Virus record (IMG/VR): IMGVR_UViG_3300010391_000157
Span: 1 to 26,365 of that record
DNA from: a virus
Strand: one strand, 5' to 3'
Length of the DNA: 26,365 nucleotides
Every line of letters starts with the position of its first letter. Position 1 is the stretch's first letter. Made by a program: the position numbers and the translations under genes. The notes under the pieces are model-generated. The model was not told the origin of the DNA. It searched no databases and saw only the letters and a list, made by a program, of their open reading frames with translations. Below, in pieces: positions 5,944 to 24,750 of this stretch.

Positions 5944-7099
5944 ATGCCGGAGCTCCAGCTACAGTCCTCGCTCGCCGGGGACACGCGCAGCAAGGCGATG
6001 CTCAAGCTCGCCGGCCGGCTGTCGCGCCCCGAGCCGGGGTCGCCAGGCGTCATCGACGGGGACGCTGCTCGTGTACTGGCTCGGCAACGAGCCCGACTCG
6101 GCCGAGCCGTACTGGAACGCGCTCATCCCGTACCTGCTCTGGCAGTTCGACCTCCTCTCGCCGTTCTGGCAGCGGCTCCAGCCGGTCGGCACGTCGGGGA
6201 CGAAGGCGCTGCGCGAGCTGGTCAAGATCGGCGTCGCGCTCCACAAGATCCGCGGCACGCCGCGAGCGCTGAAGCTCATCCTCCAGGCGCTCGGCTACGG
6301 CGCGCGCGCGCCGGCCGCGCCGACCGTCCGCATCCTCGAGGGCCAGGACTCGTGGGGCGGGTCGTACTGGCCGCCGGAGCAGGGGTGGGCGGTGTATCGC
6401 GTCGTCCTCCCGACGTCCGGCATCCGCATCGCCGAGCTGCCAGACCTCCACTGGGACCCGCGCAAGACCTACAGGCCGGGGGACATCGTGACGTACCCGA
6501 CGGCGATAAACAACGGCGTGATCGACACGGTGAACCGCGGGAGCTTCTACGTCGCGGCGACGGTGCCGCCGGTCGGCGCGCCGCCGAAGTACTTCGAGGT
6601 CGGCAACGTCGGTCGCACGATCCACGAGGACGGGACGCTGAACGCCGCGGAGAACCCGACGAACGCGTTCCAGATCGGGGACATGCGGTGGCTCAGCGAG
6701 GTGGGCGCGCTGACAACTCGTTACTGGAACCCCATGTCGCCGCTCAACGGCGTGCTGTACCGGCTGCTCACGCCGCTCGACATCAGCCTCATCCGCGAGG
6801 CGTGCGTGTTCTTCGCGCCGGTGAGCCGGTGGCTCGACCTCATCACGTTCGACATCGAGCTGGCCATCCACGACTTCCTGCCGCCGTTCTCAGACTCGGT
6901 GACCGCGCCGACCGGCGTGGCCGTCCCGGTGTTCGACGCGCTGCCACCGCTCTACGACACGATGATCGTCGCCATGCCGAGCATGGCGGACGCCATCACC
7001 TTCGTTCCGACGCACCGCGGCGCGTGGCGCCACGGCGCCGGATTCACATACTCGAAAGCGAAGATCCGCATGATCGACAACATCCCGCGGATCGTATAA
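5944..7099 (+). CDS. Phage tail protein I (P2 gpI-like), with +1 frameshift
   Basis: The protein reads in two frames. From ATG 5944 it runs MPELQLQSSLAGD... to about codon 38. The conserved part then continues in the +1 frame from GTLLVYWLGNEPDSA to the TAA at 7097-7099. Removing or skipping one G of the GGGG at 6058-6061 joins them into a product of about 384 aa. The region LLWQFDLL...ELVKIGVALHKIRGTPRALKLILQALGYG matches the core of the Tail_P2_I family, which builds the outer baseplate and attaches tail fibres in P2-like myophages. The C-terminal half contains a YRPGDIVTYPT...FYVAAT segment of the kind found in tail-attached carbohydrate-binding modules. The larger open frame that starts upstream at 5828 is not the true start, because its N-terminus is out-of-frame sequence of the previous gene. 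The break could be a sequencing indel, a real mutation, or programmed +1 frameshifting. Confidence 0.75.
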
Positions 7100-7115
7100 A
7101 AAAGGAGAGAGGACT

Positions 7116-7811
7116 ATGAGACCAAGAGGACACGTCGTCACCACCGCATGGTGCAAGAGGACCGGTCGCCGGCTGTGGACGCGCGAGGCGGACAACCTCG
7201 TCGTGTACGCGGGCACCATCAACGTCGCGAACCACATCGCCGACCTCACCAACTTCGGCGTCGTCGCCTTCGGCGTCGGGTCGGGCGGTGGCGCGCCGTC
7301 GACCGGCGACACGGCGTTGACGAACCCGAGCTACTACAAGGAGTTCGTCGCGGCGACGACCGTCTCTGGCTCGCCGCTGCCGGCCACCATCACCTTCAAC
7401 TGGGGGATCAACAGCGGGTCGCCGCTCGACCACGGCGCGAAGGGCATCGTCGCCACGGAGATCGGGCTTTTCATGAACCCGACCGGCGTGGCGCTGCCGG
7501 ACGTGATCAGCACCGTGACGCTCGGGACGTGGGCGTCGGGGTCGCCGTACGTCTCCACGCCGGCATCCTCGGCTAGCGTGCTGCTCGACTCGAACCTCAA
7601 CGTCCAGGTCTGCACGACAGCCGGCACGAGCGGCGGCAGCGAGCCGACGTGGGCCACGACCATCGGCAACACGACCGCGGACAACACCGTCACCTGGACG
7701 TGCCGCGCGCTGCACTCACAGCCGACCGTCCTCTTCGCTCGCGCGCTGATGCCGCTCGGCGTGCTCACCCCGGCCGTCGGCTTCACGTCGACGTGGTTCG
7801 TGACGGTGTAA
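7116..7811 (+). CDS. Tail fibre-associated structural protein
   Basis: 231 aa, with a strong ribosome binding site (AAAGGAGAGAGG) just before the ATG. The N-terminus (VVTTAWCKRTGRRLWTREAD, NLVVYAGTINVANHIA) resembles phage tail proteins that begin with a short beta-hairpin and a conserved N.v...G...ia element. Residues of about 165-190 carry TAGTSGGSEPTWATTIG followed by TADNTVTW, a short module recurrent in phage fibres and surface proteins. There is no signal peptide. It follows tail protein I and precedes a fibre-like gene, the usual order in myophage tail clusters (gpI, then gpH-type fibres). The exact role is uncertain; a fibre connector or fibre is most likely. Confidence 0.6.
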   Translation: MRPRGHVVTTAWCKRTGRRLWTREADNLVVYAGTINVANHIADLTNFGVVAFGVGSGGGAPSTGDTALTNPSYYKEFVAATTVSGSPLPATITFNWGINSGSPLDHGAKGIVATEIGLFMNPTGVALPDVISTVTLGTWASGSPYVSTPASSASVLLDSNLNVQVCTTAGTSGGSEPTWATTIGNTTADNTVTWTCRALHSQPTVLFARALMPLGVLTPAVGFTSTWFVTV

Positions 7812-14404: not shown

Positions 14405-15739
14405 TCATTTCAGCGCCGCGAGCAGGGCGTCCTGGACGGACGCCTTGTCCCTGAGTCGCATCATCATCTGCTCGTCGATCGTGTTGCGCGCGACGACGTG
14501 GTACACGAACACGCGCGCCATCTGGCCCTGCCGCCAGACGCGGCGGTTGAGCTGCTCGTAGTTCTCGAGGTCCCACGTCAGCGAGTGCCAGATCACGTGG
14601 CGCCCGCCGGCCTGGAGGTTCAGCCCGTGGCTGACCGACTGCGGCTGCGCGAGGAGCACCGGCAGGTCGCCGGCGTTCCACATCCTGATCGTGTCCGCCG
14701 CGTCGCGCGCTGACACGTCACCGCCGATGTGGCGCGCGACGACCGCACCGGCAAACTCCTCAGGGAAGACGCGCCGGAGCCGCTCGAGGTCGTGGTGCGT
14801 GTCGTACACGACGATGGCCGGTGAGCCGTTGAGCTCGGCGACGAGGCCACGCACCACTTCGGTCTTCTCGTCGTGGAGCTTGACCGCCACGCCGTCAGGT
14901 CCGTAGATTCCGCCGCACGCAACCTGTCGGAGCTTCGTCGTCATCGCCGCCGCGTTCACGGCCGTAATGACGGTGGTCGACTTGAGCTCCGTGATGAAGT
15001 CGTCCTTGAGCTCGTCGTACGCTTTACGCGCCGCCGGCGGGAGCTCGACCTCGATGGTCGACGCGACGAGCGGCGGGAGCTCGAGGTAGTCTTCGCTCGC
15101 GAGGCGCATCACGAGCGGCTTAATCGCTTCGTTGATCTCCTCGTCCGCGCCGTCGCGGAGCTTCCACTCGTGGCCGCCGTACCCGGTCGGGTAGAAATAC
15201 TGGTTGCGGTAGTGCGTCACGTATCGACCGAGCGCTCGCCCGCCGTCGAGGATGTACACCTGGCCGAAGAGGTTGAGGTACCCGTTCGGCACCGGCGTCC
15301 CCGTGAGGATGAACCGGCGGCGGAACATCGGGAGGAGCTTGCGCATGATCTTGAACCGCTGCGTCCCGGGGTTCTTGAACATCGTCGACTCGTCGACCAC
15401 GAGCGCGTCGAACTTCCAGCCGGGCTGAGTCGTCAGCCACGCGAGGCCATCGACGTTTAGCACCACCACGTCGGCCTCCGGGTCGCGCAGCGCCTCCGCC
15501 TTCTTCGGCCCGTGCGCGACGACGACCTTCAGCCCGTGGAAGTCGGTCCACTTCCGCGCCTCCGCCGGCCACACGAGGTGCGCGACGCGCAGCGGCGCGA
15601 CGACGAGCGTCTTCCCGACGATGCCCTCCGCCTTCAGGATCTTCAGCGCCGCGAGGACGATAGACGTCTTCCCGAGTCCCGGGTCGAGGAACAGCCCGGC
15701 CGCGCCGTGCTGGAGGAGGAACTTCACCGCGCGCTTCAT
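14405..15739 (-). CDS. SNF2/DEAD-like superfamily II helicase
   Basis: 444 aa from the first available in-frame ATG (15739). Motifs in order: Walker A DPGLGKTS (19-26), motif Ia VVAPLRVAHLVW, DEAH-box variant VVDESTMFKNP (about 114-124), motif III LTGTPVPNG (145-153), and motif VI RRVWRQGQ (399-406). The family uses ATP to translocate on duplex DNA and serves phage replication, recombination or replication-fork remodelling. The conserved Q-motif-like segment QPWKPHAY lies before the ATG and is read in the same frame back to at least 15770, where no ATG, GTG or TTG exists. Skipping one base of the homopolymer at 15777-15780 would fuse it to the upstream VRR-NUC frame. The true N-terminus is therefore uncertain; frameshift fusion or a non-standard start are the options. 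Confidence 0.8.
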   Translation of the reverse strand: MKRAVKFLLQHGAAGLFLDPGLGKTSIVLAALKILKAEGIVGKTLVVAPLRVAHLVWPAEARKWTDFHGLKVVVAHGPKKAEALRDPEADVVVLNVDGLAWLTTQPGWKFDALVVDESTMFKNPGTQRFKIMRKLLPMFRRRFILTGTPVPNGYLNLFGQVYILDGGRALGRYVTHYRNQYFYPTGYGGHEWKLRDGADEEINEAIKPLVMRLASEDYLELPPLVASTIEVELPPAARKAYDELKDDFITELKSTTVITAVNAAAMTTKLRQVACGGIYGPDGVAVKLHDEKTEVVRGLVAELNGSPAIVVYDTHHDLERLRRVFPEEFAGAVVARHIGGDVSARDAADTIRMWNAGDLPVLLAQPQSVSHGLNLQAGGRHVIWHSLTWDLENYEQLNRRVWRQGQMARVFVYHVVARNTIDEQMMMRLRDKASVQDALLAALK

Positions 15740-15767
15740 GTACGCGTGCGGCTTCCACGGCTGGCTG

Positions 15768-16118
15768 CTAGCGAATGGGGATGACCTTCGGTCGTGGTCG
15801 TCCCGCGGTTGTGACGGTCGCGACCGGGATGCTGGCGACCTTGACGCCGACGAGCTCGAGGAAAGCGGCGGCCTTCTCGTAGCTGTCGACGACCGCGACG
15901 TGGAAGCCGCGCTCGACGAGCTCGGCGCGCAAGTGCTCCTGGATCCGCCGGAGCGTCTCACCCGGCCTCTTGAACTCGACGAACGCACACTTACCTTCCT
16001 TCCCGAGCACGAGCCGGTCCGGCCACCCGCGCCGGCCGGCCGGCGTCATCTTGAGGCAGCGGAACCCGCTCGACTCCGCGAGCCCGACGAACCACCGCTC
16101 GATCTGTCTCTCCAGCAT
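15768..16118 (-). CDS. VRR-NUC domain nuclease
   Basis: 116 aa, with GGGAGGAATGTTACC before the ATG as a good ribosome binding site. The PD-(D/E)XK core is readable: GRRGWPDRLVL gives Pro33-Asp34, CAFVEFKRPG gives Glu48-x-Lys50, and RRIQEHLRAELVERGFHVAVVD supplies the conserved Gln60 and following helix-strand. VRR-NUC proteins are structure-selective endonucleases or Holliday-junction-type resolvases; in phages they sit beside or are fused to SNF2 helicases, as here. The last 15 residues (about 102-116) are outside the domain and lead to a possible +1 shift site joining it to the helicase. Function in replication or recombination is known for the family; the partner relation with the helicase is inferred from order and the open frame. 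Confidence 0.85.
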   Translation of the reverse strand: MLERQIERWFVGLAESSGFRCLKMTPAGRRGWPDRLVLGKEGKCAFVEFKRPGETLRRIQEHLRAELVERGFHVAVVDSYEKAAAFLELVGVKVASIPVATVTTAGRPRPKVIPIR

Positions 16119-22392: not shown

Positions 22393-23727
22393 TCACCTGG
22401 TGAGCTCCTTCCATCTGTACGACCACGTGCTGTTCGGCGCGTAGAAGCCGCGGTCGTAGAACGGCTCGAACGCCGGCGCGAACCGATGCACGTCGCCGTC
22501 GGCAGAGATGCGCATCGAGACGAACCACCCGCCGACGTGCGCCTGGATCTTGAGCTTGCGGAGGAACGGGTCCTGGTCCTTCGTGCACCCCGCCTGGAGC
22601 ACGTGCACCTCGCGCGGGTACCCGTACTCCGCCTTGTGGTAGTGGCCGACGAGGAGCACGGATGGCTTCTCGCCGCCCTGGTACGACTCGACGATCTTCT
22701 GGACGGCGTAGCTCGTCGCGTACGCGCTCCCGCCGCCGGCGTGGATCAGGCGCATGAAGTTCTGGTCGGCCGGCTCGAGCTCCGGGCTGCCGAGCGCGAT
22801 GTCGTGCTCCATGTGCCCGAGGAACTCGAGGTCGGTGCGCCCGGCCGCGCGCGCCTGGTGCTCGATGTACTGGCCGATGTTGATCCCCTCGCGCTGCACG
22901 TACCAGCCCTCGTGTTCGTCGCCGGTGATGAACCGCGTGACGACCCCCTTCCGCTGCGGCCAGTTCTCGACGAAGTAGCTCACCTGCCCTTCGATGCCGC
23001 GCGCCACGAGGTCGAACTTGTTGTGAATGAACTCACCGTCGATCATGTTCCCGAGCTGGTAGACGACGCTGTACCCTTCGCCTTCCCACATGTCGAACAG
23101 CGCGTTGAGGACGTCCATGCGCGCGTACTTCGAGCAGAGGTGGTTGTCGGCCGTGACGCCGAACTTCACGCGGTCGCCGTCGAACCGCGCGATGTCGATC
23201 GGTGTCGCTTCCGACTTCCCCGGTATGCGCCGGAGCTCGACCGCCCCGGCGTCTACGTGGATCTCGACGAACGCTGCCTCGAGCGTCGCGAGCGCGGTGC
23301 TGACCGCCTTCGGCGCGACGTTGAAGTGGTCGGCCAGCTCGACCGGCGTCCACTGCTTCGCGGTGCGCTTGAGGAGCGCGTGCACCGCCTCGTGGAGCTG
23401 GTCGACCGCGACGCCTCGCTTCGGCGGGACGACCACGCCGATTCGCGCGCGGTGTCGCTTCGCCTTCTCGTGGCACGCGCCGCACGTGTGGTCGCGGTTC
23501 CCGCGCCCGCTCATGTGGAACGCGGTCAGCGCCTTCTCGGCGCCGCACTCCTTGCACGTCCGGCGCGCGTCCGGGTCGGGCGGTTTCTTCAGCGCGCGCT
23601 TCTTTACGACGCGCGCCCGGCACGCCTGGCACGTCAAGTCGCGCGTGCCCTTGGCGGCTCCTCCTCTCGACCGGAACGCTGTCAGCGGCTTCGACGCGCC
23701 GCACCCCTTGCAGACTCTCTCGTTCAC
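22393..23727 (-). CDS. Zinc-finger/HTH metallophosphoesterase
   Basis: 444 aa from a GTG at 23727 overlapping the upstream stop (GTGA). Two similar zinc-finger repeats open the protein: CKGC...CQAC (6-36) and CKEC...CGAC (58-85), each with a K.LTAF motif, like fingers found in phage endonucleases. Residues of about 110-165 form a winged-helix (WTPVELADHFNVAPKAVSTA). A calcineurin-like phosphoesterase follows: Asp194-x-His196 (TADNHL), GNMID (226-230, Asn where GD is usual), GDEHE (269-273), His329 before GGG, and GHYH (361-364). Family members are metal-dependent phosphatases or nucleases; DNA-binding fingers suggest action on DNA. It lies in the early operon upstream of the polymerase genes. 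The exact substrate is unknown. Confidence 0.75.
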   Translation of the reverse strand: MNERVCKGCGASKPLTAFRSRGGAAKGTRDLTCQACRARVVKKRALKKPPDPDARRTCKECGAEKALTAFHMSGRGNRDHTCGACHEKAKRHRARIGVVVPPKRGVAVDQLHEAVHALLKRTAKQWTPVELADHFNVAPKAVSTALATLEAAFVEIHVDAGAVELRRIPGKSEATPIDIARFDGDRVKFGVTADNHLCSKYARMDVLNALFDMWEGEGYSVVYQLGNMIDGEFIHNKFDLVARGIEGQVSYFVENWPQRKGVVTRFITGDEHEGWYVQREGINIGQYIEHQARAAGRTDLEFLGHMEHDIALGSPELEPADQNFMRLIHAGGGSAYATSYAVQKIVESYQGGEKPSVLLVGHYHKAEYGYPREVHVLQAGCTKDQDPFLRKLKIQAHVGGWFVSMRISADGDVHRFAPAFEPFYDRGFYAPNSTWSYRWKELTR

Positions 23728-24491
23728 TTGCCCTCTCCCTTCAGGTGGCCGCCCTTTACGAACCACGCGCGGAACGACGAGATCGTCCCGATGGTGACCT
23801 TCTTGTCCGGGAGCGCCTTCGCCACCGACTCCGCGGCCGCTTGGTTCGTCGCGCCGCCCTTGAGCACGTCGAAGATTGTCGCGCGCAGCGTCCCCTCGCG
23901 GAACGTCGTCGCGCCGTCGGTCGGCTTCTTGGTCGCCGGCTTTTCGGTCGATGCCACCGCGCCGTCGGCCGCTATCGGCCTGTCCTTCGCCTTCGCCTTC
24001 GCGCGCGCCTTGATGCCGGCCATCGTCGCGTTCGCTGGGGTCTCTTTCTTCTTGGTCGTCTTCTTCGCTGTTGCCATCGGGACGTCTCCTTCTTTCGACA
24101 GGACGGTGACCTCCGTCGTCGGGGCCCAGTCCATCTCTACTCGGCGAGTGGCGTCTACCGTCTTCTCGCCTACCGTGAACTGCGTCTTGACGAGCCGCCC
24201 GACGCGGGCGCGACCCGGCGTCACGTGCAGCAGCGTAACCTCGCGCCCGGAGTCGAGCCGCACGAGCGACCCGACCGGCGCGCGGTTTATCGGGCCGGTA
24301 TCGCCGACCTCGAGCTGCTCGTCACCCTCGGCGCCGCACGCGATGAGCCCGGCCGACGGCCCCCTCCACGGGGGCTCGTCGTACTCCCGCGCGAGCTCGG
24401 CCGGCGTCGCCGGGTCGAGCACCGCCTTCTCTCTCTTCTTCATGTCTTTCTTCGCCGGCCCAGTCTTCGTCCGGCCGCCTCCGCGCGTCAC
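23724..24491 (-). CDS. Two-part hypothetical protein with basic C-terminal domain
   Basis: 255 aa from GTG 24491 (GTGA overlap); an ATG at 24443 is an alternative, just after a repeated hairpin element. The first part (LDPATPAELAREYDEPPW, then a beta-rich region NRAPVGSLVRLDSGREVTLL) looks like a small SH3-like domain. At residue 139 (ATG 24077) a second start, MATAKKTTKKKE, is preceded by GAAGGAGACGTCCCG, a strong ribosome binding site. From there the product is Lys/Ala-rich and histone-H1-like, then ends with a helical domain, LRATIFDVLKGGATNQAAAE, containing a T.G.ISS.raw motif. A separate 117-aa protein could be made from 24077. No function assigned. Confidence 0.5.
   Translation of the reverse strand: MTRGGGRTKTGPAKKDMKKREKAVLDPATPAELAREYDEPPWRGPSAGLIACGAEGDEQLEVGDTGPINRAPVGSLVRLDSGREVTLLHVTPGRARVGRLVKTQFTVGEKTVDATRRVEMDWAPTTEVTVLSKEGDVPMATAKKTTKKKETPANATMAGIKARAKAKAKDRPIAADGAVASTEKPATKKPTDGATTFREGTLRATIFDVLKGGATNQAAAESVAKALPDKKVTIGTISSFRAWFVKGGHLKGEGK
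24454..24476. repeat. Repeated hairpin element, copy 1
   Basis: It matches 25191-25212 except for one inserted base. It ends 10 nt before ATG 24443 on the - strand, suggesting a leader element. Confidence 0.55.
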
Positions 24492-24750
24492 GAGTGCCAC
24501 CCGTCTCTCCCCATCATCCACTGCGGCCGTGGCTTGCTCGGGTCGCGTCGCCGCTGCTGGTATCCCGACACCTCGTCGGTCTCGGCCTCCGCCGCCGACG
24601 CGTCGCTTGCAAGTAACTTGAACCAGCACGCGCCTGGTCGCAGCTGTCGGTGCACGCGCCCGTAGCGCCAGAAGACAGACCTCATGTCATCGCGCGCGTG
24701 TGCCGTCCCGTGCCGGCACGTGAAGGGCTTGGCGTGGTCGACTTGCTTCT

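What the first reader, a model, noticed from the sequence alone, without database searches (positions are those of the whole stretch)
15737..15800. VRR-NUC and helicase may be one protein made by +1 frameshifting
The helicase lacks any ATG, GTG or TTG before its conserved QPWKPHAY segment, and that frame is open back into the VRR-NUC gene. Skipping one base at CCCC (15777-15780 on the complement; codons AUC-CCC-AUU) fuses the two frames 3 codons before the VRR-NUC stop. CCC followed by A is a plausible +1 slip site. VRR-NUC/SNF2 fusions are known.
Basis: partly seen in the sequence, partly recalled or inferred. Interest (0 to 1): 0.5.

Follow-up and report, generated by a model that had tools for sequence, protein, structure and literature searches.

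The report
Phage nuclease-helicase pair, frames out of step
In this phage contig two neighbouring DNA-replication genes, a small nuclease and a helicase, look like one protein broken by a one-base frame change; a length error in the assembled sequence is a likelier cause than deliberate ribosomal frameshifting, because a tail gene in the same contig seems broken in the same way.

Summary
The geometry is real: VRR-NUC (16118-15768, minus) ends in TAG and the SNF2 helicase lies in its +1 frame without a close start before WKPHAY. But GTG 15988 and GTG 15961 are in frame inside VRR-NUC, so the claim of no ATG/GTG/TTG is wrong. Of 223 homologous loci with adjacent VRR-NUC none is fused in one ORF; of 190 distinct junctions 183 have the same +1 phase and 189 an in-frame start within 150 nt. 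So +1 phase is the family norm, not a sign of slippage. The window is still odd: codon usage follows VRR-NUC to its stop and flips to the helicase frame within 15768-15779; upstream, its helicase frame scores below all 76 homologues compared, disfavouring the GTGs. A Tail_P2_I gene (5944-7099) seems broken with the same sign near a GGGG run. Best reading: a one-base discrepancy of this contig in an ordinary replication module, implying a continuous nuclease-helicase ORF in the real genome (0.40). Programmed +1 frameshifting is possible but unsupported (0.12).

The parts
15768..16118 (-). VRR-NUC endonuclease gene, 116 aa, ATG start with strong Shine-Dalgarno-like site, TAG stop; last ~28 codons are a tail beyond the domain
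   Evidence: PF08774 20.9 bits, below the 23.8 cut-off; phrog_93 E 6e-20; site energy -10.3
14405..15766 (-). SNF2-type phage DNA helicase, the part with coding-like codon usage (15766 is approximate); frame open back to 16045
   Evidence: PF00176 E 1.8e-19, PF00271; phrog_62 E 2e-143
15740..15757 (-). WKPHAY codons, conserved helicase N-terminal motif lying before ATG 15739
   Evidence: of 190 distinct homologues: aromatic at the W position W 109, Y 54, F 25; His 173; Tyr 186
15768..15779 (-). interval where codon usage switches from the VRR-NUC frame to the helicase frame (within 2 nats; up to 15810 within 4 nats)
   Evidence: one search puts the switch at 15775/15776
15777..15780 (-). CCCC run, the proposed slip site, or the place of a contig length error
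15986..15988 (-). in-frame GTG inside VRR-NUC, candidate helicase start with good Shine-Dalgarno-like site (-9.2)
   Evidence: 3.2% of 155 out-of-frame start codons in window genes reach this
15959..15961 (-). in-frame GTG inside VRR-NUC, second candidate helicase start (-5.8)
   Evidence: 10.3% of 155 reach this
15737..15739 (-). in-frame ATG downstream of WKPHAY, weak site (-3.3)
5944..7099 (+). tail protein (Tail_P2_I) gene that seems broken between frames +0 and +1 at 6042-6068, an interval holding GGGG 6058-6061; used as evidence on contig quality

Best explanation
The locus is the ordinary phage replication pair of VRR-NUC nuclease and SNF2 helicase. The frame change between them is most likely a one-base length discrepancy of this contig in or beside the CCCC run, not a programmed event. 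In the real genome VRR-NUC would then run straight into the helicase as one ORF with a linker of about 33 residues. Shown: frames, codon-usage switch, lack of a close start, signs of a second same-signed break in the contig. Inferred: that this break is an error, and that the real product is continuous. Presumed work, from the families and not tested: the helicase translocates on or remodels DNA, and the nuclease cuts branched or recombining phage DNA.
For: Codon usage favours the VRR-NUC frame up to the stop and the helicase frame right after it. With a table from the helicase body only, the helicase frame scores -0.93 per codon from GTG 15961 to the W of WKPHAY, against a mean of +0.12 in 76 homologues, none of them as low; in the 17 with G+C of 0.60 or more, 16 are positive. 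No NTG or ATN codon lies in the helicase frame between 15961 and 15739, and from 15931 to 15740 the only ATG/GTG/TTG in any frame of that strand is GTG 15758, in the VRR-NUC frame after its stop. The Tail_P2_I gene of this contig also seems split: its N-terminus reads in frame +0 (residues 4-28, 11 of 25 identical to phage KP12, two-sequence E 0.003; 1 of 5000 shuffles as good) and the rest in frame +1 (E 2e-10 to the same protein). The two switches have the same sign; GGGG lies inside one switch interval and CCCC overlaps the edge of the other.
Against: None of 223 adjacent homologous pairs is a single ORF, so a real fusion would be new in this sample. The contig as given already has the family's usual +1 phase (183 of 190), which needs no error. 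No reads were available, and no second copy of the junction was found (0 matches; records very near the window may be left out of that search). The tail-gene case rests on one distant homologue: its frame +0 piece has no Pfam or PHROGs match (at E 1: only a 0.5 hit), the piece just after the break matches KP12 weakly (174 of 5000 shuffles as good), and frame +1 has a GTG at 6071 (-5.7) that could start a separate gene.
Confidence: 0.4

Rival explanations
1. The sequence is right and the helicase is a separate protein that starts inside the VRR-NUC gene in the +1 frame, as its relatives seem to do, at GTG 15988 or GTG 15961.
For: 183 of 190 distinct homologous junctions have the same +1 phase, and in 180 of those 183 the VRR-NUC ORF runs past the helicase start codon nearest the W; candidate starts have better Shine-Dalgarno energies than matched in-frame positions (171 versus 110 of 190 at -5 or lower, p 4e-9). 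GTG 15988 scores -9.2, close to VRR-NUC's own -10.3. L061 has GTG at -138 where its relative L066 has ATG at -144 (both also have GTG at -15), so start codons can drift inside the VRR-NUC gene.
Against: The start would lie 204-231 nt upstream of the W, further than any best-site start picked among 123 distinct homologues (up to 186). Its helicase-frame codon score is lower than in all 76 homologues compared. The extension would be a Ser/Arg-rich stretch that looks like out-of-frame reading.
Confidence: 0.24
2. A programmed or tolerated +1 ribosomal frameshift at ATC CCC ATT makes a VRR-NUC/helicase fusion from the sequence as given.
For: Geometry and codon-usage switch fit. CCC (26 of 288 Pro codons) and ATT (8 of 116 Ile codons) are rare in seven window genes, and CCC-ATT occurs in none of their 4045 codons. 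A weak GAAGG lies at 15789-15785, just upstream.
Against: 189 of 190 distinct homologues have a start of their own within 150 nt and 0 of 223 are fused, so nothing shows conservation of a shift. The A-site codon is a sense codon; CCC to CCA re-pairs only partly. In-frame CCC-A occurs 3 times and CCCC in the same register 9 times in genes taken as intact. No tRNA gene was found in the window.
Confidence: 0.12
3. The helicase starts at ATG 15739, after the VRR-NUC stop, and the upstream WKPHAY is a relic.
For: It is the only ATG near the junction. Met stands where 182 of 190 homologues have Gln; the other 8 also have Met.
Against: It loses positions that are His in 173 and Tyr in 186 of 190 homologues. 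The eight homologues with Met there (L012, L014, L028, L030, L047, L049, L092, L143) have upstream start codons. The Shine-Dalgarno-like site is weak (-3.3). Codon usage is already helicase-like before it.
Confidence: 0.1
4. The usual start codon near the VRR-NUC stop was lost by a substitution (real or an error), or initiation uses a non-standard codon; the proteins are separate.
For: L095 has no ATG/GTG/TTG within 150 nt, only an ATT about where L043 has ATG (my reading of the DNA). In the window ACG codons stand at 15901 and 15880.
Against: No NTG or ATN codon lies in the helicase frame between 15961 and 15739; ACG 15901 and 15880 have weak sites (-3.5 and -2.5).
Confidence: 0.14

Closest known systems
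Phage VRR-NUC + SNF2-like helicase pair of the replication module, as in Stenotrophomonas phage AXL_3, Pseudoxanthomonas phage PW916 and the shared genes of Candidatus Heliusviridae (PMC9226167, one passage seen)
   Same: VRR-NUC directly followed by SNF2 helicase in the +1 frame; DNA polymerase A and a PD-(D/E)XK exonuclease further upstream
   Different: Those relatives have helicase start codons inside the VRR-NUC gene within 150 nt of the W; the window has none so near, and its VRR-NUC stops just before the W
Bacterial release-factor-2 (prfB) type +1 frameshifting (recalled, from no call)
   Same: +1 shift; a weak Shine-Dalgarno-like GAAGG just upstream
   Different: No stop codon in the A site, imperfect re-pairing, no sign of conservation in relatives
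Tail_P2_I protein of Klebsiella phage KP12 (yardstick for contig quality)
   Same: Similar to both halves of the window's tail gene
   Different: One ORF in KP12, two frames in the window

Membership tests
VRR-NUC (PF08774 / phrog_93) | Profile match | tested here: inconclusive
   Pfam 20.9 bits, below the 23.8 cut-off, E 4e-4; phrog_93 E 6e-20; tblastn hits in 685 phage records at E 0.01 or better
VRR-NUC (PF08774 / phrog_93) | PD-(D/E)XK-like residues (GWPD ... EFK; motif recalled) | tested here: met
   GWPDR and FVEFK read in P0002; GWPDR and IEFK in L012 and L014
SNF2-type phage helicase (PF00176, phrog_62) | SNF2-related and helicase C domains over the cut-off | tested here: met
   PF00176 70.3 bits and PF00271 31.3 bits, both over cut-off
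SNF2-type phage helicase (PF00176, phrog_62) | Start codon upstream of the W-x-P-H-x-Y segment | tested here: inconclusive
   Only GTG 15961 and 15988, over 200 nt upstream; homologues have one within 150 nt in 189 of 190
Programmed +1 frameshift gene | Conserved in relatives | tested here: not met
   0 of 223 fused in one ORF; 189 of 190 distinct homologues have an in-frame start within 150 nt
Programmed +1 frameshift gene | Stop or strongly rare codon in the A site | tested here: inconclusive
   AUU is a sense codon but rare here: 8 of 116 Ile codons
Programmed +1 frameshift gene | Stimulating RNA structure | not tested
   No fold was run
Programmed +1 frameshift gene | Frameshift product observed | not testable with these tools
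   No proteomics or reporter data
VRR-NUC/SNF2 fusion protein | Both domains in one uninterrupted ORF | tested here: not met
   Different frames in the contig; 0 of 223 homologous pairs fused. Side search: 13 VRR_NUC matches in 185 genomes; 3 of the 8 with ORFs over 500 aa were looked at and have no SNF2 domain

The most novel reading that the evidence does not exclude
The sequence is right, and this phage lineage has turned the family's out-of-frame overlapping gene pair into a VRR-NUC/helicase fusion made by +1 ribosomal slippage at a rare CCC-AUU codon pair; the same-signed break near GGGG in its tail gene would then be a second +1 site, meaning that this phage or its host tolerates +1 slippage at 4-base runs.
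Probability: 0.08. Interest if true: 0.6.

Novelty: new member of a known kind. Interest (0 to 1): 0.22.

Why it matters
If the break is a contig error, the lesson is practical: codon-usage frame switches plus a look at other genes of the same contig help to tell assembly slips from recoding. By-product: the VRR-NUC/SNF2 pair keeps one +1 reading-frame relation in 183 of 190 distinct homologous junctions, with helicase start codons usually embedded in the nuclease gene. That suggests translational coupling of the two proteins, which a reporter could test. If the slippage were real, it would be a new recoding case in phage replication genes.

Tried and rejected
Rejected: that the +1 phase itself signals slippage (it is the family norm); that shifting one base inside the linker would expose a nearby start (from 15931 to 15740 the only ATG/GTG/TTG in any frame of the strand is GTG 15758, in the VRR-NUC frame after its stop); a tRNA gene in the window that might help a shift (none found).

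Led nowhere: a viral-contig search with VRR-NUC alone (36 stretches, no relative confirmed); a junction pattern in viral contigs to find a second copy (0 matches); near relatives in genome contigs (4 loci, 40-41% identity, all on one contig); relatives of the tail protein in viral contigs (none), by DNA in phages (none), by protein in phages (2 records, one looked at). Literature, listings only: 9 papers; 1 paper, on polinton-like viruses; 91 papers, 10 listed; no listed title or abstract start was about a frameshift or fusion of this pair in phages. Passages were seen in two papers.

Mended on checking: one search does not set the two breaks apart by start codons alone, since nearly every switch has some start codon within about 90 nt, GTG 6071 and ATG 15739 included; what sets them apart is similarity to homologues upstream of those starts. 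For this the best explanation went from 0.42 to 0.40 and the upstream GTG starts from 0.22 to 0.24. My first codon table held two doubtful genes (5944-7119, 22486-24621); the tables left them out and agree. The table includes the helicase body itself.

Limits: most loci were best-scoring hits, not a random sample; the VRR-NUC profile was seeded with window and relatives; dropped before the counts were 8 loci without VRR-NUC, 4 without a readable Walker A anchor and 4 with non-adjacent VRR-NUC, of 240 sequences including the window. The matched Shine-Dalgarno control includes positions sharing the same upstream site.

Full report
WHAT IS THERE. The window is a 26,365-base IMG/VR virus record, G+C 0.676. 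On the minus strand it carries a phage replication module: DNA polymerase A (19894-18053), a PD-(D/E)XK exonuclease with a weaker DUF2800 match, VRR-NUC (16118-15768), SNF2 helicase (to 14405) and a C5 DNA methyltransferase. VRR-NUC, SNF2-like helicase, DNA polymerase I and a DUF2800 protein are among the nine genes shared by Candidatus Heliusviridae (PMC9226167, one passage seen).

THE OBSERVATION. The end of VRR-NUC reads ATC CCC ATT CGC TAG and the helicase lies in the +1 frame. The statement that the helicase has no ATG, GTG or TTG before QPWKPHAY is not right: GTG 15988 and GTG 15961 are in frame, inside VRR-NUC. Between 15961 and ATG 15739 there is none, nor any other NTG or ATN codon in that frame.

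THE FAMILY. I gathered 239 homologous loci from viral contigs, phage records and one genome contig. With the window, 240 sequences were analysed; 224 had VRR-NUC adjacent (223 homologous loci), giving 190 distinct homologous junctions. None is a single ORF. The helicase is in the +1 frame relative to VRR-NUC in 183 of 190, +2 in 5, 0 in 2. In 189 of 190 an ATG, GTG or TTG lies in frame within 150 nt upstream of the position of the window's W; the exception is L095 (ATG at -186). In 180 of the 183 +1 junctions the VRR-NUC ORF runs past the start codon nearest the W. Candidate starts have better Shine-Dalgarno energies than matched in-frame positions (171 versus 110 of 190 at -5 or lower; p 4e-9). 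In AXL_3, PW916 and L049 an ATG lies in the VRR-NUC codons GlyTyrGlu, behind GAGGAA. So embedded start codons in the +1 frame are the norm, and the frame relation needs no slippage.

WHY THE WINDOW IS STILL ODD. A codon-usage path over the window switches from the VRR-NUC frame to the helicase frame at 15775/15776; the best switch lies in 15768-15779 within 2 nats, up to 15810 within 4 nats. With a table from the helicase body only, the helicase frame scores -0.93 per codon from GTG 15961 to the W. In 76 homologues with at least 30 nt between start and W the mean is +0.12 and none is as low; in the 17 with G+C of 0.60 or more, 16 are positive. In 45 relatives the overlap codes about equally in both frames (mean +0.15 helicase, +0.12 VRR-NUC); the window's overlap codes for VRR-NUC only. 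This argues against the two GTG codons, although GTG 15988 has a good Shine-Dalgarno-like site (-9.2; 3.2% of 155 out-of-frame start codons in window genes reach that). A start at ATG 15739 would lose positions that are His in 173 and Tyr in 186 of 190 homologues and has a weak site (-3.3).

SIGNS OF A SECOND BREAK IN THE CONTIG. The same codon path shows a switch from frame +0 to +1 in 5944-7099, best at 6042-6068. The downstream part matches Tail_P2_I and phrog_5726. Residues 4-28 in frame +0 match the N-terminus of the tail protein of Klebsiella phage KP12 (11 of 25 identical, E 0.003; 1 of 5000 shuffles as good, against 1434 of 5000 for the same DNA in frame +1), and the +1 part matches the rest of that one protein (E 2e-10). 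Frame +0 has no stop there (open to 7119). So a gene that is one ORF in KP12 seems split here, with the same sign as at the helicase. GGGG 6058-6061 lies in one interval and CCCC 15777-15780 overlaps the edge of the other; C/G runs of four or more come once per 246 nt, so meeting one at each by chance is unlikely but not excluded. Against this: only one homologue was compared; the piece just after the break matches it weakly (174 of 5000 shuffles as good); the frame +0 piece has no family match; and frame +1 has a GTG at 6071 with energy -5.7, so two separate genes are not excluded.

HOW IT MOST LIKELY WORKS. Shown: frames, family architecture, codon-usage switch, signs of a second break. Inferred: the contig carries one-base length errors at short G/C runs, and in the real genome VRR-NUC reads on into the helicase. 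Against this stand 0 fusions among 223 relatives, and the fact that the contig's phase is already the family's. I give it 0.40, the upstream GTG starts 0.24, a lost or non-standard start 0.14, programmed +1 slippage 0.12, ATG 15739 0.10.

PROGRAMMED SLIPPAGE. For it: CCC and ATT are both rare in seven window genes, and the pair CCC-ATT is in none of their 4045 codons; GAAGG lies at 15789-15785. Against it: a sense codon in the A site, partial re-pairing, no sign of conservation, and the same motifs in genes taken as intact (CCC-A in frame 3 times, CCCC in the same register 9 times). No RNA fold was run.

COMPARISON WITH WHAT IS KNOWN. The pair belongs to the known phage VRR-NUC/SNF2 replication module. 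In a side search of 185 genomes 13 VRR_NUC matches were found; of the 8 with ORFs over 500 aa I looked at 3: an N6-methylase, a protein with only a weak VRR_NUC match, and a FAN1-like protein with an exonuclease domain. The other 5 were not looked at. Paper searches (listings) showed none about a frameshift in this pair.

Noticed in passing
5944-7099 (+): Tail_P2_I-like tail gene that seems split between two frames near 6042-6068, at a GGGG run.
   Followed up: yes
14053-11090 (-): Nearly 1000-aa protein: C5 DNA methyltransferase in the first ~330 residues, then over 500 residues without Pfam or PHROGs match that look to me like a glycosyltransferase (recalled impression, not tested).
   Followed up: partly
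11093-9188 (-): Nucleotide-metabolism cluster: MazG-like pyrophosphohydrolase, thymidylate-kinase-like and thymidylate-synthase-like proteins next to the methyltransferase; possibly base modification.
   Followed up: no
L061, L062, L064, L066 around the helicase start: L066 has ATG at -144 where L061, L062 and L064 have GTG at -138 (all four also have GTG at -15): a start codon that may have moved inside the VRR-NUC gene.
   Followed up: partly
L095 helicase start: The only one of 190 distinct homologues without ATG/GTG/TTG within 150 nt; an ATT stands about where L043 has ATG, a possible non-standard start.
   Followed up: partly
L151 and L152, 1501-3381: Helicase match stretched to 1881 nt with lower score and no VRR-NUC found: perhaps an insertion in the helicase gene.
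   Followed up: no
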